Below, piece after piece: positions 2,154 to 20,344 of a DNA stretch of 64,000 bases. Origin of the DNA: Haliscomenobacter hydrossis DSM 1100. Lineage in GTDB: Bacteria > Bacteroidota > Bacteroidia > Chitinophagales > Saprospiraceae. The DNA is taken from NCBI RefSeq assembly GCF_000212735.1, contig NC_015510.1:7379001-7443000 (forward strand), in the 5' to 3' direction. The first letter of the stretch is position 1, and each line of letters starts with the position of its first letter. The notes under the pieces are model-generated. The model saw only the letters and a program-made list of their open reading frames with translations, was not told where the DNA came from and searched no databases. The translations under genes and the position numbers were made by a program.

Positions 2154-5100
2154 TAGCGCAGTAAGGTCGTTTGTCCGCGTTTGATTTCACTGTACCCATC
2201 GGGATATACGGCCTCCAGGAACCACAGGTAAATCCCGGGGTTGAGCACCTGGTTGCGGTAACTGCCATCCCAGCCCGTGGTGGTGTCGTTGACGTCAAAG
2301 TTTTCCCGCGAGTACACTTCTTCTCCCCAGCGATCGTATACTTTGAAGCTTTTTATTTTGACCCCATTCTGGCCGTGAACCAGCAGTAAATCGTTGTTTT
2401 GGTCACCATTGGGCGAAAATCCGGTAGGCACCAGCACGATCCGTTGTTTGCGCACAAAAACCCTCACCTTGGCGCTTGCCTCACAGCCCTTTTCATCAAT
2501 GGCCAGCAGCTCGTAATCAATGCCGTTTTGGGTACGTACGGTTGGCCTAGGACAATCAAGACAACTCAGAGTGCCCGCATCAGGCTCTTCCCAGGTGTAC
2601 CTTACATTTCCCTGGTTGTTGATTACCTCCGCATTGAGCTGGATGGTATCACCCAATTGGATGGTATAACTGGTTTGATTCAGATCAATCAAAAGCGCTG
2701 GCTTTTCATTGATCACCGCTTGTTCAATGGTAATACAACCATTGGCGTCTTTGACAAATACGTCATATTTGCCCGCTTTTAGCCCTATGGCACTGAGTAT
2801 CGGGCGGTAATTGCTCTGGTTGATACTCAACAAATATGGCGCTTTGCCGCCGGAAGGTGCAGTGGTGATCAACCCATCAAGATCGCCATTGCAAGTGGGG
2901 TCCTGGGTTCTTAGATTGATGTTGATCGGATTGGGTATGGGAATGTTCACGTTATTCACACTGGAACAGCCTTTTGCGTCGCTGACCGTCACCCGGTAAA
3001 GCCCCCCGGGGATGTTGCCAATGAATGCCGTGGTCGCACCATTGCTCCAGTTGTAGCGGTAGCCCGGGGTGCCACCCGAAGGGCTGATGGCCGCGCGTCC
3101 GGAGGTGTCACCAAAACAAACCGGGCCAAAAGCTTGTACCAAAACCTGCACCGGGCTCGGTTCGCGAATCTGTACTGCCCCAATGCCAAAACAGCCAAAA
3201 TCATCGGTGACGGTCACGGTATAAATCCCAGCGCTGAGGCCAGTGGCCCTTTGGGTGTTTTGGTTCCGGGCTCGGCTATCCCACAGGAACGTAAAATTGC
3301 GGGTGTCGGCCAGAATATTGCGCACAGTGGCGGTGGCGGTATTTCCTCCACTGCAACTCAAGGTATCGCCAGCAATGTCGAAGGTAATGGCCCGCGGTTG
3401 GCGTACGGTGCGGGTGCCTGTAGCGATACAGCCTTGCGGGTCGGTAATGGTCACCGAATACGTCTCTTCACCCCGTAAACCACGGATGATCTGGCCAGTC
3501 TCACCATTGCTCCAGCGGAAACGGTATTGATCCAAATCGGCATTAGGGCGGCCAACAATCAGGTTGATGCCAATGGCCCCATTGGAACCACCAAAACAAG
3601 AGGGCTGCGAAATGATGGTATTCGGCTCCATGGCGGGTAAATCCTGGAGTTTGATTAAACCTGCCTGTGTACAGCCCGTGGCATCGGTTACCGTAAGTGA
3701 ATAGTTGAGCGAGTCAAGTCCACTCAGTTCCTGGCTGGTTTGCCCATTGTTCCATAGATACGTATACGGGCTGCCTGAGCCGCCGATTGGCAGTGCCCGG
3801 GCCATGTTTTGTTTTAATCCATAACAACCCTGGCGCGTTTGTTCAACACTCAAGGTGAGTCCATTGGCTGGCTCGGTGATGATGGCACGGCCTTCAACCG
3901 TACAATTGTTCAAATCCGTAACCGTAATGCCATACGAGCCAGCACTGAGCAAGCTGGCCAAGGTGTCATTGTTGTTCACGGTTTCCCAGGTATAGCGGTA
4001 GGGTAGGGTGCCTCCGCTGACTTTGATGGAAGCCTGGCCATCATTGCCACCTTTACACTTGATTGACCGGGCATTGATTTGCAAACTCAGCGCAGTTGGG
4101 GCAACAATGCTGATGCTTTGGGTGATGCTGCAGTTGTTGGAGTCGCTGACCATGACCTGGTACTGCCCGGCTGCCAGCGAGTTTGCGCTGCGGTTGATTT
4201 GCCCTTGGGGGTCATTCCATTGGTAAGATAATGCACCCGTACCACCGGAGACAAAAACAGTCGCTTGGCCATCACTGCGGTTGGCGCAAGAGGGTTGTCG
4301 TATTCTGGTAGAATCAAGCTTTATTTGGATAGGGGCTTTAATGTCCCGACAATCGGAAACCACACAACCATTGGCGTCGGTAACGGTAACACAATAGTTA
4401 TTAGCCCTTAAGTTGGTTAAATTATTGGTGACAGCCCCATTGGACCAGCGATAACTCAAATTGCCCATACCGCCAAATGACATGGCGGTCAAACGCCCGT
4501 CGCTGGCTCCAAAGCAGGTGATATCGAGAGGAATCATGGCCAGCACAATCGAATCGGGTTCGGAAATCGTGATGCGTTGGGTGCCTCGGCAACCGTTGAC
4601 ATCGGATATTGAAAGGGCGTAAGTACCCGCACCAATATTGCTAAGACCAGATGAGGGAAGGCCATTGTTCCAGGTATATCGGAAGGGGCCACTACCTCCG
4701 GCAATGCTGGAAGAAATGATGGCATTGCGGTCGCCGGCACAGCGTAAAGCACGATCGAGGGTCAAGGTGAGGATGAGTGAATCATTCTGGCCGATGTTGA
4801 AGTCCAGGGTGTCGCGGCATAGCCCCTCATCCAGTGCAATCAATTGATACGTGCCAAAATCCAATCCATCGCTTCGGAAAGGTTGAATCAAGCCAATGGG
4901 CCCCGTGAGCTCATAATTGATCGTACCAATCCCTCCGCTGATGTCAAAATCAAATGCACCATCACTGGCGGTAGTGCAAGAAATATTTTTGGTGCTGCGC
5001 AAATTGACCGATAAGGAACAAGGCATGATGCGGCATGAAGCAACCCCAATACCAGAGCGACAAAAGTTGAGGCTGTCGGGGCTAAATGCTTGTACCCCAA

Positions 5101-7627
5101 TTCTTACTTCATCATCGGGCATGAGGTTCCTTAGCGTATAAAAAGTATCACTAATCGGAATGGGCAAGAGTGAATCCCGCCCATTGATGGCAAAACGAAT
5201 GCTGTATTGGCGGGCATTGGTCGCGGGCCAGCTAAAACGAATGCTACGGGCAGTGATTTGTGCACAGCTTACCTGGGGTGCAGCAAAGGTATCCCGAACG
5301 ACTACCAGAAAATCATCTTCAAAGGTGCAGCCGTAGCTGCTTTGTGCTTTCACGTTGATGCGGGTATTGTTGGGTACCAGGGCCACTGGGTTTGGACAAT
5401 CTGTGCAAGAAAGGCCTGCCGCTGGTGACCACTCGTAGGTAAGGGTATCTACTGAGCGAAAACGAATGGACCAACTGAGCAATTCATTGATTTCTTGGGG
5501 CAAAGTGCCAAATGCATCGGTGATGAGCAAAGCCCAATCTCCTTCGATGGTGGCGCCCTGCAAGTCACTCCAGCTGCCCTCCGGCAACCAATCTCCGGTA
5601 AAAGGTGCCATACCTGCGTTGATCGGGTCACTTGCCCGAGCGGTAAAACAGGTTGATATAAAATTGTCATCTGAGCCTCCATTTCCCGTACTCAGTTCCA
5701 ACAGTTCACCACTGGGGGCTCGCAGAAAGATATCCAGGTCCGAGTTCCAATCCGAATTCAGGTCGATACAAACCGATTCAATTTGATTGCGCGGATCAGT
5801 TAAAACCCCCTGGGCGATATTGCTCACCGGAATGATCGATTCATAAGGTGTACCTGGCGGGTGTTGCACAAAATTGAACCGGTATTGGGGAAACGAAGTA
5901 AAGCCAAGCACCTGATTCAAGCGCTCATTGGGCAAAAAAGACAATTGTAAGCTGTCGCCCTGACACAGGCTGGTATCGGCTAGTTTATCAAAGGTCAATA
6001 AACAAGTGCCACAGGTTGAATCATTTTGAGGTTTTACCCGCAGCGTAATGGTGGTATCAAAATTACATTGAAAAGAATCTTGTACAATCAACCGGTAGGA
6101 AGCAAAACCACCCTCAGAAGGGGAAACGGAAATGCTGTTGTCGTCCTGAAACAGGATGGTCGGATGAAAACGCCAAATGAGATCGGCAACCCCCGGGTTG
6201 AACGTTTCGACTTTGGGGAAAACGACGGGATCAAACTGCAAACTCCAGGAAAAAATAAAACCATTTTCACTACTGTTCAAATCCTCAAGCTCCAATACCC
6301 ATTCCCCATTGAGCGGACAACCCAGGAGTTGGCTGAGCGACTGAAAGGGCCGATACTCACCAATGGGCAAACTATCGAGGTTAAAGGAATCCACGTAGTC
6401 GCTCCAGTTGTTGTTGGAGACGGGCGTTTTCCAGCAATATTCGTAGCCGCGGCCGGGGCGGGGTGAGGCATCGTCGTTGGGGTTGGCTTGCCCCAGTTCC
6501 ACCAGATTGCCCCCGGGACCATTGAAGTTTTGCAGGATTACCCTGCTTCCGTTGGGACAGCGCAAGGCAATGTTCAAATCGCGCATTTGGGAGTGCTCGA
6601 TGTTGATGCAGATGCCCTTGAGGTTGTCTACTTCGCTGAGGTTTTGGCCTACAAAAAATCCGTCTACAGCCAGGCTTGATTCCAATTTCCGACCATCGTT
6701 GTCGGGAATGAACTGGTTTTCACCTTTGATAAAATCGGTTTGAAAGCTGGCAGTTTGAGCAGTGACCCTCACTGTAGCACCTGGCACATTGGAGGGAGCC
6801 GCCACCAAGAGCAACGTATCACCAGCACAAATCTCTGGCAACAAGGATGCATCGGCACTAAAACGCGGTGATGGGGCAACGCGGATTTTTTTCTCTGCCA
6901 CATTGGTACTCCGACAACCCCGGGCATCGATCGCACTGAGTTTGACAGTGTAGCCACCTGATTGGGGATAATTGTGTTCAACGGTGCGACCAGTACGCAC
7001 TACGCCATCCCCAAAATCCCAGGAAAAGGTGGACGTGCTGTCCGCCTGGGCGTACAGATTGTTGTTTTGGGTATAAAGCCCCCGGGCTCGTAAAAACAGG
7101 TTGCCACCCGGGCACAGATTGATCGTATTGGTATCCTGCGGCAATGCTTCAGGGTCGGAAAACAATACTGCGGCAGTAAAATTCTGACATTCCTGGATAC
7201 ATTCGATGTTGGCTACCCAACCCGCAGCTTCTTCCTGCGCATCAGAGCGGAAAGCAATGGTCAGGCAACTATCGGGATTGGCTGCGGAAGATTGTACCGA
7301 AAAAGGGCGGTTGCTCAGCGAAAAGTCGATACACAACAATAGTGGTGCGAGGGTGTCTTTACCATCGTAAAAACAAAGTCGATCACCTCGTCCCAAATTA
7401 ATGGCTGGAAAATTGAGCCGAACCCGTGAACCTACAGTGGGGTCCGGACAAATGGTCATGACCAGATTTTCGTTCGCGCGGTAATTGAAATTGCGCTCTC
7501 CAGAATCGGTAAGGAAGCCCCCACATGCACTTATCGTGGTGTCAGCGAGGGGAATGAATTGCGCAAAAGTAGCTGTTGAAAAGCACAGCACCGGTAAAAA
7601 CACCAGGATGCGTATCATTTTCACCAT
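2153..7627 (-). CDS. Giant secreted adhesin-like protein with SprB repeats and gliding-motility C-terminal domain
   Basis: 1824 residues. A signal peptide (ends ATFA-Q near residue 22) is followed by a CUB-like domain (about 30-140), a PKD domain (FSWDFGDG, about 175-255), two proprotein-convertase P-domain-like beta sandwiches (about 300-470 and 575-730), a fibronectin-III-like stretch (about 790-870) and ten SprB-type repeats (about 880-1640). Each repeat opens with a CxGxxDG-like motif, has YxWxNG in the middle and ends V(S/T)DxxGC. The C-terminus is a CHU_C/gliding-motility domain (PTGFSPNGDQNNDLL ... YDRWGEEVY ... GIYLWFLEA), which in this phylum directs export by T9SS. It is most likely a surface adhesin or gliding-associated protein; the ligand is unknown. 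It is the first gene of a pair with the WbqC-like gene. Confidence 0.88.
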   Translation of the reverse strand: MVKMIRILVFLPVLCFSTATFAQFIPLADTTISACGGFLTDSGERNFNYRANENLVMTICPDPTVGSRVRLNFPAINLGRGDRLCFYDGKDTLAPLLLCIDFSLSNRPFSVQSSAANPDSCLTIAFRSDAQEEAAGWVANIECIQECQNFTAAVLFSDPEALPQDTNTINLCPGGNLFLRARGLYTQNNNLYAQADSTSTFSWDFGDGVVRTGRTVEHNYPQSGGYTVKLSAIDARGCRSTNVAEKKIRVAPSPRFSADASLLPEICAGDTLLLVAAPSNVPGATVRVTAQTASFQTDFIKGENQFIPDNDGRKLESSLAVDGFFVGQNLSEVDNLKGICINIEHSQMRDLNIALRCPNGSRVILQNFNGPGGNLVELGQANPNDDASPRPGRGYEYCWKTPVSNNNWSDYVDSFNLDSLPIGEYRPFQSLSQLLGCPLNGEWVLELEDLNSSENGFIFSWSLQFDPVVFPKVETFNPGVADLIWRFHPTILFQDDNSISVSPSEGGFASYRLIVQDSFQCNFDTTITLRVKPQNDSTCGTCLLTFDKLADTSLCQGDSLQLSFLPNERLNQVLGFTSFPQYRFNFVQHPPGTPYESIIPVSNIAQGVLTDPRNQIESVCIDLNSDWNSDLDIFLRAPSGELLELSTGNGGSDDNFISTCFTARASDPINAGMAPFTGDWLPEGSWSDLQGATIEGDWALLITDAFGTLPQEINELLSWSIRFRSVDTLTYEWSPAAGLSCTDCPNPVALVPNNTRINVKAQSSYGCTFEDDFLVVVRDTFAAPQVSCAQITARSIRFSWPATNARQYSIRFAINGRDSLLPIPISDTFYTLRNLMPDDEVRIGVQAFSPDSLNFCRSGIGVASCRIMPCSLSVNLRSTKNISCTTASDGAFDFDISGGIGTINYELTGPIGLIQPFRSDGLDFGTYQLIALDEGLCRDTLDFNIGQNDSLILTLTLDRALRCAGDRNAIISSSIAGGSGPFRYTWNNGLPSSGLSNIGAGTYALSISDVNGCRGTQRITISEPDSIVLAMIPLDITCFGASDGRLTAMSFGGMGNLSYRWSNGAVTNNLTNLRANNYCVTVTDANGCVVSDCRDIKAPIQIKLDSTRIRQPSCANRSDGQATVFVSGGTGALSYQWNDPQGQINRSANSLAAGQYQVMVSDSNNCSITQSISIVAPTALSLQINARSIKCKGGNDGQASIKVSGGTLPYRYTWETVNNNDTLASLLSAGSYGITVTDLNNCTVEGRAIITEPANGLTLSVEQTRQGCYGLKQNMARALPIGGSGSPYTYLWNNGQTSQELSGLDSLNYSLTVTDATGCTQAGLIKLQDLPAMEPNTIISQPSCFGGSNGAIGINLIVGRPNADLDQYRFRWSNGETGQIIRGLRGEETYSVTITDPQGCIATGTRTVRQPRAITFDIAGDTLSCSGGNTATATVRNILADTRNFTFLWDSRARNQNTQRATGLSAGIYTVTVTDDFGCFGIGAVQIREPSPVQVLVQAFGPVCFGDTSGRAAISPSGGTPGYRYNWSNGATTAFIGNIPGGLYRVTVSDAKGCSSVNNVNIPIPNPININLRTQDPTCNGDLDGLITTAPSGGKAPYLLSINQSNYRPILSAIGLKAGKYDVFVKDANGCITIEQAVINEKPALLIDLNQTSYTIQLGDTIQLNAEVINNQGNVRYTWEEPDAGTLSCLDCPRPTVRTQNGIDYELLAIDEKGCEASAKVRVFVRKQRIVLVPTGFSPNGDQNNDLLLVHGQNGVKIKSFKVYDRWGEEVYSRENFDVNDTTTGWDGSYRNQVLNPGIYLWFLEAVYPDGYSEIKRGQTTLLR

Positions 7628-7671
7628 AGAAACATTGGTTTTCGGAATTACGAGAGTGCTTTTGCCTCTTT

Positions 7672-7833
7672 TAGAGCTTGTTTAAATATTTTGTTTTAGG
7701 CGAAAATGAGGCTGATTTGGGGTGAATGAGGCACGAAAAGCGGAGTGTAGCAGCACTACATGAGCATTTTCGGAACGAGATTCACCGCAAATCGGGCCAT
7801 TTGCAGCAAAACAAAAAAATTTAAACAAGCTCT
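7672..7833. repeat. About 160-bp imperfect palindrome in a divergent promoter region
   Basis: The outer arms AGAGCTTGTTTAAAT (left) and ATTTAAACAAGCTCT (right) are perfect complements. Complementarity continues with small bulges through the whole element to a central hairpin TGTAG-cagca-CTACA near 7746-7760. It occupies most of the 299-bp spacer between the divergent adhesin (starts 7627) and adenosine deaminase (starts 7927) genes. It encodes no plausible protein. It looks like a non-autonomous hairpin or MITE-like element. A terminator role is unlikely because neither neighbour ends here. Confidence 0.75.
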
Positions 7834-7926
7834 TATGCTGAGGCAAAAACCTGAATCAAGATAACGCAAATACCGGGCACACAAATGTAAAGAAAAGGAT
7901 TAAATTTAACGGAGAAAAGCAAAGCA

Positions 7927-8910
7927 ATGGATTATACCAGACTGCCCAAAGTGGAGCTGCACCTACACCTGGACTGCTCTTTGAGTTACCAGGTGGTGCA
8001 AAAACTTGACCCACATATAACTTATGAAGCCTATAAAAGTTCTTTCGTTGGCCCCGTAAAATGTTACAATTTGGCCGATTTCATCACGCGGGCCCAACAC
8101 GCCATTGCCTTGATGCAAACCACAGAACAACTGCGCCTGGTGACCCTCGATTTGTTTGACCAATTGCAAGCAGATGGGGTCATTTATGCAGAAATACGTT
8201 TTGCTCCGCTGGAGCATACCCGACTTGGATTGAGTCCACAGGAAGTTGTTCAGGCGGTAAATGACGCGGTACAGCAGGGCATTGCCCAAACCGGAGTGGA
8301 AGTGCGCGTGATCCTGTGTACCCTTCGCCATTACAGCGAAGCACAAAGTATGGAAACGGTACAATTGGTCAAAGATTTTCAGGGAACATATGTCGTAGCT
8401 TTCGACATTGCCTCCGATGAGGCGGGCTTTCCCATCACCCAGCACATCCGGGCTTTCGAGTTTGCCAATGCTCATCAATTGCACTGCACTGCGCATGCCG
8501 GGGAAGCCAAAGGTGCAGAAAGTGTTTGGGAAACCTTGCAATATTTTCATCCCTCGCGCATCGGCCACGGCGTACGCAGCCTTGAAGACGCAGGCTTAAT
8601 GGAGTTTTTGAAAAAAAACCAAGTCCATTTGGAAGTATGTCCCACCAGCAATGTACAGACCAACATTTATCCCCGCATTCAAGACCATCGCATCGACGAA
8701 ATTTACCACAGCGGCGTCTCCATGAGTGTCAATACCGATGCCCGGGCCATCGCAAACGTTACCTTGAGTAGTGAATACCAAACCCTGGAGGAAATTTTTA
8801 AATGGGACCTGGAACATTTTTTGACCTGCAACCTGGAGGCGATTGAACATGCATTTGTGCCGGATGAACTGAAGGAAACATTACGGAATAAGTTGTTAAT
8901 GGCTTATTGA
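7927..8910 (+). CDS. add: Adenosine deaminase
   Basis: 327 residues. Hydrolytic deamination of adenosine or deoxyadenosine to inosine in purine salvage, in the cytoplasm. The metal-dependent amidohydrolase fold is evident: the HLHLD zinc motif at residues 12-16, the AHAGE block with its catalytic Glu, the RIGHG motif, VCPTSN, and the metal-binding Asp in VNTDAR. The second Asp of the classical TDDP is replaced (TDAR). Some bacterial members also vary there, so activity is probable but adenine- or other-nucleoside specificity is possible. The start is ATG. Upstream lies the long palindrome at 7672-7833. No operon partner overlaps it; folD follows after its own promoter. Confidence 0.88.
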   Translation: MDYTRLPKVELHLHLDCSLSYQVVQKLDPHITYEAYKSSFVGPVKCYNLADFITRAQHAIALMQTTEQLRLVTLDLFDQLQADGVIYAEIRFAPLEHTRLGLSPQEVVQAVNDAVQQGIAQTGVEVRVILCTLRHYSEAQSMETVQLVKDFQGTYVVAFDIASDEAGFPITQHIRAFEFANAHQLHCTAHAGEAKGAESVWETLQYFHPSRIGHGVRSLEDAGLMEFLKKNQVHLEVCPTSNVQTNIYPRIQDHRIDEIYHSGVSMSVNTDARAIANVTLSSEYQTLEEIFKWDLEHFLTCNLEAIEHAFVPDELKETLRNKLLMAY

Positions 8911-8920
8911 GTTTACTTTA

Positions 8921-8951
8921 TTGGTTATTGCAGAGAACTCTTGTACTTTTG
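8921..8951 (+). promoter_or_regulatory. Predicted Bacteroidota-type promoter of folD
   Basis: A TTG at 8921-8923, a 20-base spacer and TACTTTTG at 8944-8951 fit the Bacteroidota sigma-A pattern (TTTG, about 19-20 bases, TAnnTTTG). The -7 element lies 20 bases before the folD start, so the 5' untranslated region would be very short. Confidence 0.6.
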
Positions 8952-8971
8952 AGCCGTAAAGAACATACACG

Positions 8972-9859
8972 ATGGCAATTTTAGATGGGAAACAACTGGC
9001 CCAAACAATCAAGGCAGAACTGCGCATAGAAGTTGACAAAATCAAAGAGCAAGGTGGTAAACTGCCCCATTTGGTGGCGGTTTTGGTGGGTGATAACCCC
9101 GCCAGTCAAGCATACGTGCGCAATAAAGTACGCTCCTGTGAAGAAGTAGGCTTTCAGTCTACCCTCATTCATCGCCCAGCAGACATTTCGGAAAAAGAAC
9201 TCCTCGAAATCGTGGAACAGCTCAACCGCGACACTTCAGTTGATGGTTTCATCGTACAATTGCCCCTGCCCAAGCACATCGATGAGCACCAGGTCACTTT
9301 AGCGATTGAACCCAAGAAGGATGTGGATGGCTTTCACCCGGTCAATTTTGGGCGTATGGCGCAAGGTTTGCCCTGCTATTTGCCGGCAACACCGATGGGG
9401 ATTTTGGAAATCCTGCGGCGTTACGAGATTCCTACTGCGGGTAAAGAGGTCGTGGTACTCGGGCGTAGCAACATTGTGGGAACGCCAATCAGTATTTTGC
9501 TCTCCCGCAAAGGTTATCCTGGCGACGCCACAGTCACGGTGTGCCACAGTCGCACGGATGATCTGGCTGCACATACCCGGCAAGCGGATATTTTGATCGC
9601 CGCAATCGGGGTGCCGGAGTTCGTCAAGGGTGACATGGTCAAAAAAGGAGCTGTGGTCATCGATGTCGGCATCAATCGGGTGGAAGACTCAACATCCAAA
9701 TCGGGGTACAAACTCGTAGGGGATGTAGACTACGCCGCAGTGGCACCTCTGGCTTCGTGGATTACCCCGGTGCCCGGTGGGGTGGGCCAATTGACCGTAG
9801 TCGCGTTGTTGATCAATACGCTAAAATCGGCGAGAGGAGAAGTATATGGTTTAAGTTGA
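8972..9859 (+). CDS. folD: Bifunctional methylenetetrahydrofolate dehydrogenase / methenyltetrahydrofolate cyclohydrolase
   Basis: 295 residues, the usual FolD length. It interconverts 5,10-methylene-, 5,10-methenyl- and 10-formyl-tetrahydrofolate with NADP, supplying one-carbon units for purines and formyl-Met. Visible signatures are ASQAYVRNKVRSCEEVG (with the catalytic Lys), DGFIVQLPLPKHID, the Rossmann motif GRSNIVGTP and the terminal TPVPGGVGQLTV; the commoner form of the last block is GGVGPMT. The start is ATG, with a predicted promoter directly upstream. The last two codons and the stop (TTA AGT TGA) already lie inside the left arm of the palindrome at 9851-9935. Confidence 0.96.
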   Translation: MAILDGKQLAQTIKAELRIEVDKIKEQGGKLPHLVAVLVGDNPASQAYVRNKVRSCEEVGFQSTLIHRPADISEKELLEIVEQLNRDTSVDGFIVQLPLPKHIDEHQVTLAIEPKKDVDGFHPVNFGRMAQGLPCYLPATPMGILEILRRYEIPTAGKEVVVLGRSNIVGTPISILLSRKGYPGDATVTVCHSRTDDLAAHTRQADILIAAIGVPEFVKGDMVKKGAVVIDVGINRVEDSTSKSGYKLVGDVDYAAVAPLASWITPVPGGVGQLTVVALLINTLKSARGEVYGLS

Positions 9860-9935
9860 AAAGTTTGTAGTTGAAGGGTTGAAAAGTAATGCAACCTAAC
9901 TCTTCAACCCTTCAACTTTTCAACTTTTCAACTTA
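9851..9935. repeat. Inverted repeat with GTTGAAAAG tandem arms, folD 3' end
   Basis: The left arm (9851-9887) has TAAGTTGAAAAG and GTTGAAGGGTTGAAAAG units. The right arm (9902-9935) has the complementary TTCAACCCTTCAACTTTTC and repeats CAACTTTT. It fills nearly the whole folD-DinB-fold gene spacer, begins inside the folD coding sequence and ends 6 bases before the next ATG. It could act as a terminator or RNA-stability hairpin; no T-tract follows. Confidence 0.8.
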
Positions 9936-9941
9936 GAAAAA

Positions 9942-10451
9942 ATGAACGGTAAACAAGGCATCAGCAACATTGTCATGCAAATCAATGACATTCTGATCGA
10001 CATTGAGAGCAATCTCTACAAAATGCCCCTGGCCATTTACAACGGCTCATCCATCGGGCAACATTTTCGGCACATTTACGATTTTTTTCGTTGTTTGGTT
10101 TATGGTGTGCAAGAAAACGTGGTTGATTACGCCCGGAGGGAAAGAGATTTGCAAATCGAACAAGATCCCCGTTTTGCTTTGGCCGCTTTCCAACGCGAAC
10201 TGGATTATTTGCTGACCCTGGATGAGCAGATGCCGCTGAGCGTTCGGGCCGATTTTTCAACACATAGCGACGTAGGTCGCCCTGAATACCCCACCTCGGT
10301 AGGTCGTGAACTCATGTTTGTACACGATCATGCGGTTCACCATTTGGCCATGATCAAAATTGGCTTGCAAAATGAAGCCCCCGATTTGCTCAAAGACAAA
10401 AACTTTGGGGTAGCGCCATCCACCATCAAATTTCGCCAGCAAGAGGCATAA
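9942..10451 (+). CDS. DinB-fold (four-helix bundle) metal-binding protein
   Basis: 169 residues resembling the DinB/YfiT superfamily of small helical-bundle proteins. The expected metal triad positions are visible as His in GQHFRHIYDFF (residues 41/44) and His residues in VHDHAVHHLAMIK near 127-134. Characterised relatives bind a divalent metal and act as thiol-dependent transferases or are damage-inducible, but the function of this branch is unknown. It starts with ATG 6 bases after a palindrome and is followed 32 bases later by prmA, so the two are probably co-transcribed. It is unrelated to the DNA polymerase also called dinB at 24314. Confidence 0.75.
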   Translation: MNGKQGISNIVMQINDILIDIESNLYKMPLAIYNGSSIGQHFRHIYDFFRCLVYGVQENVVDYARRERDLQIEQDPRFALAAFQRELDYLLTLDEQMPLSVRADFSTHSDVGRPEYPTSVGRELMFVHDHAVHHLAMIKIGLQNEAPDLLKDKNFGVAPSTIKFRQQEA

Positions 10452-16230: not shown

Positions 16231-16424
16231 TCGCGTAGCGACGACCCATTTTGTAGCGGCGGGTTTCAACCCGCCGATGAAATGGCCGATCTTGTTTTTA
16301 ATGGAGTGCCGTAGGTACGGCGTTTTTGATTGATCTGGGTCGTACCTACGGCACTCAAAATACACTTACACCATTGACGGCGGGTTGAAACCCGCCGCTA
16401 CAAAATGGGTCGTCGCTACGCGAC
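16231..16424. repeat. 194-bp nested palindrome, family B copy 1
   Basis: The outer arms read TCGCGTAGCGACGACCCATT, TTGTAGCGGCGGGTTTCAAC on the left and the reverse complement on the right, about 46 bases each. Inside is a second inverted pair (GCCGTAGGTACGGC and GTCGTACCTACGGCAC). The copy at 26416-26609 has the same length but opposite orientation of its centre. Around this copy a weak outer pair TAGGACACA (16111) / TGTGTCCTA (16486) is also present. It has no coding capacity. The stretch 16088-16719 otherwise holds only a GATCG-family repeat at 16593; no gene is seen in it. Confidence 0.85.
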
Positions 16425-16592
16425 TTGTCGGTTTAACCTGTGTCATGAGGAGCCGCAATCCCTTCAATATCAAACACAAAAATTCTGTGTCCTAATCATA
16501 GCCCTTTAAGAGTCTGGGGTCCTGATGCTGAAAGGTGGTGCTCATCAACAGAACCAATGGCCTCTGCCACCAGAGGTATGCTCAGGCTAACT

Positions 16593-16654
16593 GCGATCGT
16601 CGAGCTTGCCGACGCAGTAGGCAAAGAGAGATCGACGAGCGCTCACGGAGTGAT
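16593..16654. repeat. GATCGWCGAGC-family repeat, copy upstream of the trypsin-FGE gene
   Basis: The element runs GCGATCGTCGAGCTTGCCG ... GATCGACGAGCGCTCACGG, AGTGAT. The same 62-base element recurs in direct orientation at 18396-18457 and in inverted orientation at 18264-18328, so copies lie on both sides of the trypsin-FGE gene. Confidence 0.8.
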
Positions 16655-16719
16655 GGGTAGCTTATTCAATTTCCCCAATTTTCTGAAATTTCCTTATTTT
16701 TCGCCAAAGCTTGCCTTCA

Positions 16720-18171
16720 ATGAATTCATCAACCCTAAACACCATGTCCTTTTGCTATCCCCAGTCCCATTTTTGGCGCTGCAGCCTGGCCCTGTTGTTG
16801 CTTTTTTGGAGCACGTTGATGCCTGCTCAAGACCCCATCGCGCAAATGGCCGAAAGCCTCAAACCCAACGTGTTCGCCATCAAAACTACCTTCGAAGACG
16901 GTTCAGAAGAAAAAGGCTTCGGATTCATTACTGGAGAAGAGAAAGGAAAATTGTACCTGGCTACCGCAGCCCATGTGGTCCGCGGAATAGAATTGAATCA
17001 AAAAGCCAAAAGTATCCAGGTCAAATTTTTCAAGGACATCCGTTGGCTGGAAGCAACTTTTCTCTACCACTGGGATCGTGAAGATTTAGCGCTGTTAGAA
17101 ATGAATAAACCAACTTTCGTGCAATGGCGGAGTGATTGTGCGGATTTTTCTCCCCAAAACCTCCAAAAAGTGCGTTTCATCGGCTTGAATGGCAACGAGC
17201 CTGCTTGGGTTTATCCCGGTAGCGGGGAGATATTTGATGTATCAGGTAATGCCATTCAGTTTGCCATCGGCACCATCCGCCCCGGTACTTCTGGCGCGCC
17301 ATTGATCACTGAGAAGGGGATTGTGGGACTTATCACGCAAGATGAGGGTGGGATTTCGACGGCGCTGAAGTTGACGCAGATTCAGACTTTGTTTAGCGGG
17401 GGCGGGCAATATCCGTATTTTGGATTGCAGCCATTGGGGGGTGTTGTGGCAACGCCACCGATAAATACAAATGTGCCCGTAACTGTCACGCAACCCGATG
17501 AATACGGACTGGTGCTGGTAAAAGGCGGAACTTTTACCATGGGCTGCACCAGCGAGCAGGGGAGTGATTGCTACGATTGGGAGAAACCAGCGCATCAGGT
17601 TAGGGTAAATGATTTTCACATCGGCAAATACGAAGTGACGCAGGCGCAGTGGCGCAAAGTAATGGGTAGCGATCCCCCAAATTTGAATTTCAAAGGCTGT
17701 GACCAATGCCCGGTAGAACGGGTAAGTTGGGAAGATATCCAGGAGTTTTTGCGCAAGCTCAATGCACAAACGGGCAAAAAATACCGACTACCTACCGAAG
17801 CGGAATGGGAATACGCGGCCAGAGGAGGCAACCAGAACAATAGCTACAAATATGCGGGCAGCAATACCCTCAGCGAAGTGGCCTGGTTTACGGATAATTC
17901 GGATAGCAAAACGCATCCAGTGGGTACCAAAAAGGCCAACGAGCTGGGCTTGTACGATATGAGTGGCAATGTATGGGAATGGTGCCAGGACTGGTACGGC
18001 GGTTATTCCAGCAATATACAGACGAATCCGACTGGAGCTGGTTCGGGCTTTAACCGTGTGTTTCGTGGCGGTGGCTGGAGCTACGGCGCGAGGAATTGCC
18101 GCGTGTCCGATCGCGGCAACTACACGCCGACGGACCGCTTCTACAATTTGGGGTTTCGTCTTGCCCTCTAG
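16720..18171 (+). CDS. Secreted trypsin-like protease domain fused to FGE-sulfatase/C-type-lectin-fold domain; probable DGR target
   Basis: About 483 residues. ATG starts at 16720 and 16744 are both possible; a signal-peptide-like segment (RCSLALLLLFWSTLMPAQ) follows either. The N-terminal half is a trypsin-fold serine protease with a full triad: His in ATAAHVV, Asp in DREDLALLE and Ser in RPGTSGAPLI. The C-terminal half is a formylglycine-generating-enzyme/SUMF1 fold (GGTFTMGC, KYEVTQAQW, YRLPTEAEWEYAARGG, GNVWEWCQDWYGG, FRGGGWSYGARNCR, LGFRLAL). In the last 38 codons nearly every hypervariable-type position is a codon ending in C or T (ggc, agc, tac, ggc, gat, ggc, tac, gac, ttc, tac), as expected for mutagenised AAC/AAT codons of a diversity-generating retroelement. 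No reverse transcriptase is in the window. It likely recognises variable ligands at the cell surface. Confidence 0.85.
   Translation: MNSSTLNTMSFCYPQSHFWRCSLALLLLFWSTLMPAQDPIAQMAESLKPNVFAIKTTFEDGSEEKGFGFITGEEKGKLYLATAAHVVRGIELNQKAKSIQVKFFKDIRWLEATFLYHWDREDLALLEMNKPTFVQWRSDCADFSPQNLQKVRFIGLNGNEPAWVYPGSGEIFDVSGNAIQFAIGTIRPGTSGAPLITEKGIVGLITQDEGGISTALKLTQIQTLFSGGGQYPYFGLQPLGGVVATPPINTNVPVTVTQPDEYGLVLVKGGTFTMGCTSEQGSDCYDWEKPAHQVRVNDFHIGKYEVTQAQWRKVMGSDPPNLNFKGCDQCPVERVSWEDIQEFLRKLNAQTGKKYRLPTEAEWEYAARGGNQNNSYKYAGSNTLSEVAWFTDNSDSKTHPVGTKKANELGLYDMSGNVWEWCQDWYGGYSSNIQTNPTGAGSGFNRVFRGGGWSYGARNCRVSDRGNYTPTDRFYNLGFRLAL
18052..18171 (+). other. Candidate DGR variable region (VR)
   Basis: The last 120 bases of the trypsin-FGE gene match the layout of DGR variable repeats in FGE-fold targets: RVxRGGxW, ARNCRVS, R, TPT, R, LGFRLA as invariant blocks. 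The intervening codons can all be derived from AGC, AAC or AAT by changing only A residues. The invariant 3' block (TTGGGGTTTCGTCTTGCC) and the bases after the stop are where an initiation-of-mutagenic-homing signal would be expected. The template repeat and reverse transcriptase must lie elsewhere if this reading is right. Confidence 0.6.
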
Positions 18172-18263
18172 TTACTGAGGTTTGCCATTTGGCTTTCTAT
18201 TGGGCTAAAAAATGTCCGCAAATAGCCCGACGCTTACCGCAAGCGAGCGAGAGAAATTTTACG

Positions 18264-18457
18264 CCATCACTTCGTGAGCGCTCGTCGATCCCAAAATGCT
18301 CGCTGTCGCGAGCGGGCTCGACGATCGCGGGGCCCCAGACCTTACCTCGCTTTGAGCGTGGTGTGATGCCCAGACGACGTAGGCTCGGGGTAAGTGCGAT
18401 CGTCGAGCTTGCCGCCCTTGGCGGCGAAAAAAGATCGACGAGCGCTCACGGAGTGAT
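18264..18457. repeat. GATCGWCGAGC-family palindromic pair downstream of the trypsin-FGE gene
   Basis: The left unit (18264-18328, inverted) has ATCACTTCGTGAGCGCTCGT and ends CTCGACGATCGC. The right unit (18396-18457, direct) has GCGATCGTCGAGCTTGCCG and GATCGACGAGCGCTCACGG. Together they form a palindrome of about 194 bases. They lie in the 298-bp spacer between the trypsin-FGE gene and the convergent symporter gene. Confidence 0.8.
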
Positions 18458-18469
18458 ACGTAAGCTTTT

Positions 18470-20344
18470 TCAATTCTCAAAAATCGTCTTCCAGCTCTTT
18501 TCCCTTTTCCCCTCTTCCTCCGCTTCCTGCAAATGATTCCACCAGCTTCGTTTCAACACATAAGCGCAGGCCCCCAAAATCAGCACGACCACGAGCAGCG
18601 GCAACTTCATCCACAGCACCAGAAACATCGGCAACAAGGTCAGACAGCACTGCGCCACAATTCCAATCAACACATTGAACCCATCGCGGTAAGGCCGGGC
18701 ATCGCTCACAAAATGAGGGTCTTGCTCCAGCACTTTATGATGGATCGGCTGCCAAAATCCCCAGGGGCGCACCGTTTTGTAAAACTGCACGAGGGTAGCC
18801 TCATCCGTAGCAGGTGTGGCCAGCGATGCGATGATGGACGCGCTGAGCGAGGCCATAAACATCAGGGGAAAAAGCCACAAGGGCAACACATCGGGGGCCA
18901 GAACAGGGATGAGCAAGGCGCTAATCACCCCAATGGTCATGCCCCAGGCGAAGCCACTCGCATTGAAACGCCACCAGTGCCACTTCAGCACATTTGCGGC
19001 GATGTACCCTCCGTAAAGCGCGGAGGCCAACCATTGCAAAATGGCATCCACACTGCTGGAAAAAATGCCCAGTACCATGCTGATGGTCACCACCAGTATT
19101 CCAACCAGGTAGTTGGTATTCAAAATGCTACGCAATGAAGCCCGCGGGTTGAGGTATTTGAGGTAGATGTCGTTGACAAAATAGGACTGCGCCGCATTCA
19201 GTGTGCCTGCAAAAGTGCCCATAAAAGCGGCCACCAAACCCGCTACAACCAAACCGCGCACGATGGGTGGGGTGAAACTTACAATGGCAGCCGGTAAAAT
19301 GCGCTCAAAATCAATGCCCTGCGCCGAAGCCAAATTGAGCTGATCGGTATACAACAGCGCCAAAACGGTGAAACCAATGACCATGGCGTAGCGTACAGGT
19401 AGCAAAACCAAAGACGCAAATCCCGACATTTTAGCGGCTTCTTCGGGAGAGCGGCTTGAAAAAATCTTTTGCAGGTCGTAATTCGGCGTTGGCCCGGCTA
19501 AACTTGCAAAAATCCCTTTAAAAACCATCATCATGAAAAAAGCGCCCCAGGGCGAAAACCCGTCATCGATGATTTTATGCTGCACTTCGGGGTTGAGTTC
19601 GTACCAATTGAGTCCCAAATCCCAGCCAAAAAAGGGACTGTACCAGCCAGCGGGTACGGGCAAGGCCTGGCCATGGAGGTGAACGGCGGCAATGACCGCA
19701 ACACAAACAGATGCGATGCCCAGAATGCCGTACATGACCAAATCACTCCACACCACACTGTTCATACCGCCCAGGATCGTATAAAAAACTACAAACACTG
19801 TAAACAACAGGCCATAAAAATGGGGCACATATTGCGGTGCCAAGGCAAAAGGTAGATAAGGGGCAAGAACATTCCAGGGGATGAATAATTCGATGAATTT
19901 ACCCAACCCCACGAAGCCATACGCCAAAAAACCCAAACAGCCCAATAGGGCAAAAATCACCGTAATGAGGTGTGAAAACTGGCTGCCCCGGCCTTCGCCA
20001 AAACGCGTTTTGAGCCATTCGGCCCCGGTAGAGGCATTGGAGCGCCGCAACCACCGCGACAAATACATCATCAAAAAAACCTGGTTAAAAACGGGCCACA
20101 GCCAGACGATCCAGATGCTTTTCAAGCCGTACACAAAACACAAAGCGACCATCCACATCGTTCCCGAGATGTCGAACATATCCGAAGCATTGGACAAACC
20201 CAGGAGGTACCAGGGCAGTTTTTTACCCCCCATCATGTAGTCCTGATGGCTCATGCGGGCTTTGTGCCGCATCAGCAAACCAATCAATACCGTTATGCCC
20301 AAATACAATGCAATCACCAACAAATCGAGATTGTGCAACTTCAT
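18470..20344 (-). CDS. Sodium:solute symporter (SSS family)
   Basis: 624 residues with about 14-15 hydrophobic segments. SSS-family features include LDLLVIALYLGITVLIGL at the start, the DYMMGGKKLPWYLLGLSN loop after helix 1, SDMFDISGTMWM, GGMNSVVWSDLVMYGIL and FMGTFAGTLNAAQSYFVNDI. It would couple Na+ to uptake of a sugar or similar solute at the inner membrane. It starts 53 bases after the stop of the GH26 enzyme on the same strand, so the pair is probably one operon and the substrate may be a mannoside or manno-oligosaccharide. This is inference from context; substrate residues cannot be assigned. Confidence 0.88.
   Translation of the reverse strand: MKLHNLDLLVIALYLGITVLIGLLMRHKARMSHQDYMMGGKKLPWYLLGLSNASDMFDISGTMWMVALCFVYGLKSIWIVWLWPVFNQVFLMMYLSRWLRRSNASTGAEWLKTRFGEGRGSQFSHLITVIFALLGCLGFLAYGFVGLGKFIELFIPWNVLAPYLPFALAPQYVPHFYGLLFTVFVVFYTILGGMNSVVWSDLVMYGILGIASVCVAVIAAVHLHGQALPVPAGWYSPFFGWDLGLNWYELNPEVQHKIIDDGFSPWGAFFMMMVFKGIFASLAGPTPNYDLQKIFSSRSPEEAAKMSGFASLVLLPVRYAMVIGFTVLALLYTDQLNLASAQGIDFERILPAAIVSFTPPIVRGLVVAGLVAAFMGTFAGTLNAAQSYFVNDIYLKYLNPRASLRSILNTNYLVGILVVTISMVLGIFSSSVDAILQWLASALYGGYIAANVLKWHWWRFNASGFAWGMTIGVISALLIPVLAPDVLPLWLFPLMFMASLSASIIASLATPATDEATLVQFYKTVRPWGFWQPIHHKVLEQDPHFVSDARPYRDGFNVLIGIVAQCCLTLLPMFLVLWMKLPLLVVVLILGACAYVLKRSWWNHLQEAEEEGKREKSWKTIFEN

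What the first reader, a model, noticed from the sequence alone, without database searches (positions are those of the whole stretch)
18052..18171. Probable diversity-generating-retroelement variable region acting in trans
The C-terminal 38 codons of a secreted trypsin-FGE protein have fixed blocks (RVFRGG, ARNCRVS, TPT, LGFRLA) separated by codons all ending in C or T. All can be reached from AGC/AAC/AAT by changing A only. This is the signature of adenine-specific mutagenic homing into an FGE/C-type-lectin fold. No reverse transcriptase is in the window, so the retroelement would be remote. The N-terminal protease domain would make the diversified protein a variable-specificity protease or sensor.
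Basis: partly seen in the sequence, partly recalled or inferred. Interest (0 to 1): 0.75.

Follow-up and report, generated by a model that had tools for sequence, protein, structure and literature searches.

The report
Orphaned retroelement-diversified protease-lectin gene family
The end of this gene was once scrambled by a bacterial diversity-generating retroelement, as were its sister genes, but no template that could have written it was found in the genome, so it looks like a frozen product of a lost mutagenesis machine rather than a gene being rewritten now.

Summary
At 18055-18168, thirteen codons of a trypsin-FGE protein carry the imprint of adenine-specific mutagenesis. In the five-gene family 63 of 65 such codons end in C/T, 12 of 13 differ nonsynonymously from the closest paralog, and K/E/Q/M/W are nearly absent, while constant codons drift silently at about the rate of the rest of the gene. 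In 28 RT-linked template repeats of other bacteria, AAC/AAT sits at the same columns: of 9 columns that the search did not enforce, 8 match in 27-28 of 28, codon 3 in 11 of 28.

The genome holds one complete-looking DGR (RT, Avd, HRDC protein, template, nSTAND1-FGE target) 1.94 Mb away. Its template differs from its own VR at 1 of 79 non-A sites but from the window VR at 19 of 79, so it is not the donor. No other template was found.

Best reading: an orphaned variable region, diversified after gene duplication by a DGR now lost from this genome. Action 'in trans' is not supported.

Side finding: a structured repeat; 19 of 22 copies lie near FGE genes or the DGR, but not so in congeners.

The parts
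16744..18171 (+). Trypsin-FGE gene (475 aa from ATG 16744, stop TAG 18169-18171); N-terminus signal-peptide-like by eye; start codon chosen by me, the tool's longest ORF starts at 16711
   Evidence: three paralogs 87, 76 and 68% identical
16918..17319 (+). Trypsin_2 domain; candidate catalytic His, Asp, Ser (TAAHVV, EDLALLE, GTSGAP) invariant in 4 of 4 aligned proteins; that they form the triad is recalled
   Evidence: Pfam PF13365 E 5.4e-9; alignment
17506..18165 (+). FGE-sulfatase / C-type-lectin domain carrying the variable region
   Evidence: Pfam PF03781 E 5.2e-52; TvpA 2y3c E 1.8e-35
18055..18168 (+). Variable region (38 codons); 13 AAY-derived codons starting at 18061, 18079, 18082, 18085, 18094, 18109, 18115, 18118, 18121, 18133, 18139, 18142, 18145
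18166..18233 (+). 3' tail after the VR, found behind the five family genes and nowhere else in the genome at E <= 1; no convincing hairpin in the three tails folded
   Evidence: 5 matches, all family members; z -0.66, 1.33, 0.72
16586..16660 (+). Structured repeat copy upstream of the gene
18259..18335 (-). Structured repeat copy downstream, inverted
18389..18463 (+). Structured repeat copy downstream, inverted pair with 18259-18335

Best explanation
The feature is an orphaned DGR variable region. A DGR whose template encoded about RVNRGGSWNNNARNCRVSNRNNNTPTNRNNNLGFRLAL-stop copied mutagenised cDNA into the 3' end of a duplicated trypsin-FGE gene and its sisters. The sisters then carried different, fixed binding surfaces, and the template (and its RT) was lost from this lineage. 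Since then silent sites have drifted normally. The likely role of the protein, inferred and not shown, is a secreted or periplasmic trypsin-like protease whose C-type-lectin domain binds a ligand that each paralog sees differently, as a sensor or conflict effector. Shown: the mutational imprint, the paralogs, the lack of a matching template in the searches of this genome, and one other complete-looking DGR. Inferred: loss of the donor, the binding role, protease activity.
For: Codon-position test and amino-acid-matched third-base test. In window vs the 314k paralog, 12 of 13 AAY codons differ nonsynonymously, against 2 of 24 constant VR codons and 14 of 128 upstream codons; silent differences are 4 of 24 constant VR codons and 31 of 128 upstream, so mutagenesis followed duplication and no common template has refreshed both copies recently. 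Independent support for the inferred template: 39 template-like sites in other genomes, 28 with a DGR-type RT in the fetched stretch; of the 9 family-variable columns that the pattern did not enforce, 8 are AAC/AAT in 27-28 of 28 and codon 3 in 11 of 28. Seven of the 39 also encode the LG[FL]RLxL-stop end. Searches of the genome for a second template were negative. The resident DGR has its own near-perfect VR. Two family relatives in a congener also keep C/T at 13 of 13 and 12 of 13 columns.
Against: A control on FGE genes of four relatives with no RT match at E <= 1e-20 (G002, G009, G019, G020) yielded only 5 usable genes out of 29 FGE matches and did not separate cleanly: third base C/T 22 of 28 vs 335 of 505 upstream (p 0.13), K/E/Q/M/W 7 of 65 vs 223 of 1000; two of the five look DGR-derived to me. 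So absence of the imprint in DGR-free genomes is not demonstrated. Two of 65 family codons break the pattern (CGG in 571k, AAA in 475k). For one member, 475k, the resident template scores as well as the best outside template (21 of 81 vs 21 of 82 non-A mismatches), so a separate template lineage is clear for four of the five only. Loss of the donor is inferred from absence in one assembly.
Confidence: 0.8

Rival explanations
1. The VR family is still diversified in nature by a DGR carried by other strains, a plasmid or a phage of the same species, and only the sequenced strain lacks it (as reported for disrupted loci of Thiohalocapsa).
For: Thiohalocapsa DGR 7: VRs had no perfect match in the reference genome but intact variants existed in the population (PMC10907252 sections 7 and 8). 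Relatives carry RTs of this kind: 39 of 199 genomes of the family have a match at E <= 1e-20, the weaker of which need not be DGR RTs. G004, a congener, has a different template beside Avd-like and RT-like frames (names by resemblance).
Against: Silent drift in the constant VR codons (4 of 24 vs 31 of 128 upstream) suggests that the two closest copies were not refreshed recently from one template. No close template in phages (0 records), in plasmids (3 records, partial or weak, 72.6-87.0% identity) or in viral contigs (0 exact matches to one pattern). The templates recognised in the 35 fetched stretches with family RTs mismatch the window VR at 22 or more non-A sites; in many stretches none was recognised.
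Confidence: 0.13
2. One reading: the resident remote DGR at C1:5.459 Mb mutates this VR in trans.
For: A complete-looking DGR is present, its template has AAC/AAT at the same 13 codons, and trans action is documented elsewhere.
Against: 19 of 79 non-A mismatches against 1 of 79 for its own VR. The last 18 bases of the compared stretch differ at 5 places, whereas in phage BPP-1 a 14-bp element at this end is identical between template and VR (PMC3240598 passage; that 21 bp beside it carry 5 mismatches shows some tolerance).
Confidence: 0.03
3. No DGR: ordinary positive selection or recombination among paralogs of a binding loop produced the variability.
For: Y, N, D, F and H have only C/T-ending codons, so a surface-loop composition alone raises the C/T count; the resident template does not match; the small control set was not significant.
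Against: The bias remains in amino acids with free third bases (24 of 25, expected 15.9). K/E/Q/M/W are almost absent. The affected columns coincide with AAC/AAT of RT-linked templates in other genomes. The common residues Y, N, S, D agree with the spectrum measured for AAC mutagenesis (PMC12875486 passage; composition).
Confidence: 0.04

Closest known systems
Treponema denticola TvpA (PDB 2y3c), DGR variable protein
   Same: Best solved-structure match by sequence to the FGE domain, including the C-terminal VR (E 1.8e-35)
   Different: The match covers the C-terminal part only, no trypsin part; the window VR has no template found in its genome
Resident DGR of this genome (C1:5.455-5.460 Mb; DGR elements 'from Haliscomenobacter' are mentioned in the DiGReF paper, PMC3521204)
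   Same: FGE-type VR, AAC/AAT at the same 13 codons
   Different: Different template skeleton (ARVA instead of CRVS, other 3' end); target is nSTAND1-FGE; 19 of 79 non-A mismatches to the window VR
Bacteroidales DGR templates from other genomes (for example in L210, L225)
   Same: Template encodes the inferred ancestor of the window VR, including the L-stop end; RT in the same stretch
   Different: 14-15 of 82 non-A mismatches to the best three family VRs and 20 or more to the other two, for the window VR mostly at third positions; from other genomes, so not the direct donor
Thiohalocapsa PB-PSB1 DGR loci, trans and template-less VRs (PMC10907252)
   Same: FGE/CLec VRs, trypsin and STAND partners, VRs without a matching template, MITE-like repeats at DGR loci; multicellular or filamentous host (recalled for Haliscomenobacter)
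   Different: In the passages seen, trypsin is a partner or effector in conflict systems; here it is fused to the VR domain in a gene family. Variation in nature was shown there, not here

Membership tests
DGR target gene (variable region) | Substitutions concentrated at sites that are A in the template (AAC/AAT codons) | tested here: met
   against the RT-linked template L225: 19 of 33 A sites and 15 of 81 non-A sites differ, p 7e-5
DGR target gene (variable region) | A cognate template repeat, near-identical except at adenines, in the same genome | tested here: not met
   the only template found is DGR1's, with 19 of 79 non-A mismatches
DGR target gene (variable region) | VR at the C-terminus of a C-type-lectin/FGE fold | tested here: met
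   By sequence only:
DGR target gene (variable region) | DGR-type reverse transcriptase and Avd in the genome | tested here: met
   RT with IGNLTSQ and YMDD motifs, the only SQ-type among the 17 RVT_1 matches (meaning of the motif recalled); phrog_1423 E 2.9e-111; in NCBIfam its best match is group II intron RT, below that model's cut-off. Avd NF033474 112.4 bits, cut-off 80. 1.94 Mb away and not matched to this VR
DGR target gene (variable region) | IMH-like 3' end matching the template, with downstream hairpin/cruciform | tested here: inconclusive
   3' end does not match the resident template; folds of three tails not better than shuffles
DGR target gene (variable region) | Ongoing variation within or between populations | not testable with these tools
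   No reads or second isolate of the species at hand; metagenome scans capped at 0
Trans-acting DGR target (as in PMC10907252) | VR matches a remote template at all non-adenine sites | tested here: not met
REP/REPIN or MITE-like repeat (for the flanking repeat) | Short palindromic units in inverted pairs, dispersed, structure conserved | tested here: met
   6 of 23 pairs with compensatory change; inverted pairs in the window and at the 475k gene
REP/REPIN or MITE-like repeat (for the flanking repeat) | A mobilising transposase (RAYT or IS element) | not tested
   No search was made for it

The most novel reading that the evidence does not exclude
This genome holds a repertoire of dozens of fixed binding domains that were each written by DGRs and then kept: 34 FGE C-termini show the AAC-derived imprint in aggregate (29 of 34 singly at p < 0.05 in the test that is not amino-acid-matched), yet only one template was found. 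Gene copies and their flanking structured repeats spread together, so DGRs acted as repertoire founders (mutate, duplicate, freeze) rather than as continuous diversifiers.
Probability: 0.25. Interest if true: 0.75.

Novelty: new variant of a known kind. Interest (0 to 1): 0.5.

Why it matters
[quoted passage not shown] A variable region that keeps the imprint after the template is gone would escape too. The imprint test used here (C/T third bases in free codons, lack of K/E/Q, columns set by known templates) can find such fossils and would let one ask how often a DGR is used to found a repertoire and then lost. It also directs any test of 'live' diversification in this organism to the resident DGR's own nSTAND1-FGE target and away from this gene.

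Tried and rejected
In-trans mutagenesis by the resident DGR: rejected on non-adenine mismatches. A second template in the genome: the inferred-template search at E <= 10 (24 matches) gave the five family VRs, the DGR1 template, one further FGE gene at E 3.8e-5 (6740568, FGE) and 17 weak matches (E 0.019 or worse), most of which were not inspected; the pattern GGNGGNNNNTGGAAYAAYAAY with one mismatch gave 4 sites, of which only the DGR1 template matches exactly. The pattern would miss a template without AAY at those codons.

Other RTs as DGRs: the motif was read in stretches of all 17 RVT_1 matches; only L017 is of SQ type, 15 are of SP type and the one in L020 has another motif.

A downstream hairpin as in phage BPP-1: not supported by folds of three tails. 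Rfam: no match at E <= 0.1 in 16400-18700. Promoter and terminator scans found no more than shuffles do. A phage or plasmid source of the template: none convincing. PADLOC: only weak matches for the window protein. Structure prediction was not run because TvpA already gives the fold by sequence.

Rows left out of counts: the genome-wide imprint uses 34 of 38 regex-matched FGE C-termini (4 of other length dropped). One search listed 56 FGE matches, one of them the template itself; 30 came with loci, 20 of the other 26 were fetched, three lie in loci already held and three were not fetched. FGE domains that do not fit the regex were not counted.

The repeat was noticed from this window's flanks, and the model was built from 14 of the pattern search's 15 copies, 13 of them near FGE genes or the DGR; the model search scored 150 of 2079 first-look candidates in this genome, so its list may be incomplete. 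The pattern search does not depend on position.

Full report
WHAT WAS CHECKED. The window is C1:7379001-7443000 of an 8,771,651-base genome in 4 contigs, completeness 100. The size fits my recollection of Haliscomenobacter hydrossis DSM 1100; no tool named it. The ORF at 16711-18171, read here from ATG 16744, encodes a trypsin-like domain and a C-terminal FGE domain (Pfam). The finding's coordinates hold the last 39 codons and the stop.

THE IMPRINT IS REAL. Searching the genome with this stretch gives four further FGE genes at 2541k, 314k, 475k and 571k, each with the same fixed blocks and the same 3' tail. Full-length alignment gives 87, 76 and 68% identity for three of them; the fourth, 2541k, lies in a 1679-aa frame with a different N-terminal part. 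In the comparison with 314k, VR substitutions fall mostly on codon positions 1 and 2 (13, 7, 7), while those of the 456 upstream codons fall mostly on position 3 (37, 22, 114) (Fisher p 1e-4). Comparisons with 2541k, 475k and 571k, against the last 150 aligned upstream columns, give p 0.005, 9e-5 and 4e-4; the pairs are not independent. At the 13 columns that are AAC/AAT in the resident template, 63 of 65 family codons end in C/T. Amino acids with a free third base use C/T in 24 of 25 cases against 265 of 506 upstream; the amino-acid-matched expectation is 15.9. K/E/Q/M/W occur at 1 of 65 against 244 of 1000. Two relatives in the congener G004 keep C/T at 13 of 13 and 12 of 13; one of them also has the tail.

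THE GENOME HAS A DGR, BUT NOT FOR THIS GENE. Of 17 RVT_1 matches, one, at C1:5458851, has the SQ-type RT motif. Around it (L017) lie an nSTAND1-FGE target, an HRDC-domain protein, an Avd above its curated cut-off, the RT and a template directly behind it. NCBIfam has no DGR RT call for it: its best match there, group II intron RT, is below that model's cut-off. Template and local VR differ at 19 of 32 adenines and 1 of 79 other sites (p 5e-12). The window VR differs from that template at 18 of 32 adenines and 19 of 79 other sites over the same 37 codons. No other template was found by similarity or by pattern. The published test for trans action, a perfect match at non-adenine sites (PMC10907252 section 8, read), fails.

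WHAT THE LOST TEMPLATE LOOKED LIKE. From the five VRs I inferred a template encoding RVNRGGSWNNNARNCRVSNRNNNTPTNRNNNLGFRLAL. A pattern scan of the species-representative genome collection found 39 sites in other bacteria, mostly Bacteroidales MAGs by their titles; 28 of 39 have a DGR-type RT in the fetched stretch. The pattern enforced four of the thirteen AAY codons. Of the nine left free, eight are AAC/AAT in 27 or 28 of the 28 RT-linked templates; the ninth, codon 3, is so in 11 of 28. Seven of 39 also share the LG[FL]RLxL-stop end. Best non-A mismatch counts over 117 bases are 15 of 82 for the window VR, 14 of 82 for 2541k and for 314k, and 20 of 82 for 571k, against 21, 23, 24 and 27 of 81 for the resident template; for 475k the two tie (21 of 82 and 21 of 81). 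So four of the five point to a template lineage different from the resident one. Templates recognised beside sampled RTs of the same taxonomic family have 22 or more non-A mismatches.

ORDER OF EVENTS (inferred). Between the window gene and 314k, 12 of 13 AAY codons differ nonsynonymously, against 14 of 128 upstream codons, so the VRs were rewritten after the duplication, unless recombination with another copy brought the difference in. The constant VR codons differ silently at 4 of 24, against 31 of 128 upstream, so the copies have not been refreshed from a common template for about as long as they have existed. Numbers are small. Then the donor disappeared from this lineage.

A WIDER IMPRINT. 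One search lists 56 FGE matches in this genome (one is the template); four relatives have 14, 7, 5 and 3. In 34 C-termini of the standard length (of 38 found by the regex), free third bases are C/T in 154 of 188 against 1944 of 3412 upstream, and K/E/Q/M/W occur in 13 of 442 against 1563 of 6696. The commonest residues are Y, N, S and D; for AAC mutagenesis in a reconstituted DGR the dominant changes measured were to Y, S and D (PMC12875486 passage). Excluding the five family members, the remaining 29 genes still show 130 of 163 against 1679 of 2906. Singly, 29 of 34 reach p < 0.05 in a test that does not match amino acids; five do not. The control set from four relatives without an RT match had only 5 usable genes and was not significant (22 of 28 vs 335 of 505; K/E/Q/M/W 7 of 65 vs 223 of 1000), so I do not claim that FGE genes in DGR-free genomes lack the bias.

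FUNCTION. The sequence match to TvpA, a DGR variable protein, supports a variable binding surface. The trypsin-like domain keeps its candidate His, Asp and Ser in 4 of 4 aligned proteins. That it is secreted, active and triggered by ligand binding is inference. Trypsin-like effectors and FGE/CLec sensors occur together in conflict systems of multicellular bacteria (PMC10907252 and PMC7159879 passages).

A REPEAT THAT TRAVELS WITH THE GENES. Three copies of a 75-78-nt stem-loop repeat flank the gene, and its core pattern occurs nowhere else in the window. The core occurs 15 times in the genome; by the coordinates lie within 1.3 kb of an FGE match or the DGR template. A covariance model, from an alignment with 6 compensatory pairs, gives 22 copies; 19 of 22 copies, 8 of 11 loci, lie within 1.3 kb of an FGE match or the template, where 2.9% of random positions lie within 2.5 kb. 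Against a general rule: in three congeners 64 copies were found and 22 fetched; only 3 of these 22 have an FGE gene within the fetched flank, some of which are cut by contig ends. A fourth congener, G002, has no copy. MITE-like repeats at DGR loci are known from Thiohalocapsa (PMC10907252 section 7).

WHAT IS KNOWN. DGR elements from Haliscomenobacter are mentioned in the DiGReF paper (PMC3521204, one passage). Trans targets and VRs without a matching template are known. In five literature searches I saw no listing that describes this trypsin-FGE family or a set of template-less VRs in this organism; they cover the held open-access papers only. I saw search listings for most papers, the outline and sections 7, 8 and 14 of PMC10907252 with passages of others, and passages of PMC3521204, PMC8144416, PMC7159879, PMC12875486 and PMC3240598.

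VERDICT. Observation confirmed; DGR origin well supported; 'acting in trans' not supported; most likely an orphaned, frozen variable region.

Noticed in passing
window 16586-16660 (+), 18259-18335 (-), 18389-18463 (+): Structured REP/MITE-like repeat with compensatory stem changes; 19 of 22 copies found in the genome lie within 1.3 kb of an FGE match or the DGR template, but only 3 of 22 fetched copies (of 64) in congeners have an FGE gene in the fetched flank.
   Followed up: partly
L017:4950-9982 (C1:5454949-5459981): Complete-looking DGR: nSTAND1-FGE target with VR at 7704-7815, HRDC-domain protein, Avd, RT, template at 9871-9982; VR and template differ almost only at adenines.
   Followed up: yes
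L066, L069, L070 (C2:27135, C1:2743751, C3:122096): FGE VRs, two of them on the smaller contigs, with 9, 10 and 13 non-A mismatches to the resident template; L066 and L069 share several of these changes by eye, suggesting a second lost template.
   Followed up: partly
L166 (unnamed congener G004, contig C2): Another DGR layout in the genus: template at about 3251, Avd-like frame 3400-3918 (+), RT-like frame 3933-5120 (-), FGE target 5113-9297 (-); names by resemblance, not by profile search.
   Followed up: partly
L015 and L016: CRISPR-like repeat arrays on both sides of SP-type reverse transcriptase frames, one on the chromosome and one on contig C3.
   Followed up: no
C1:1535357-1538404: Cluster of FGE genes (L084, L087, L101) with AAC-derived-looking codons and another constant skeleton.
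   Followed up: no
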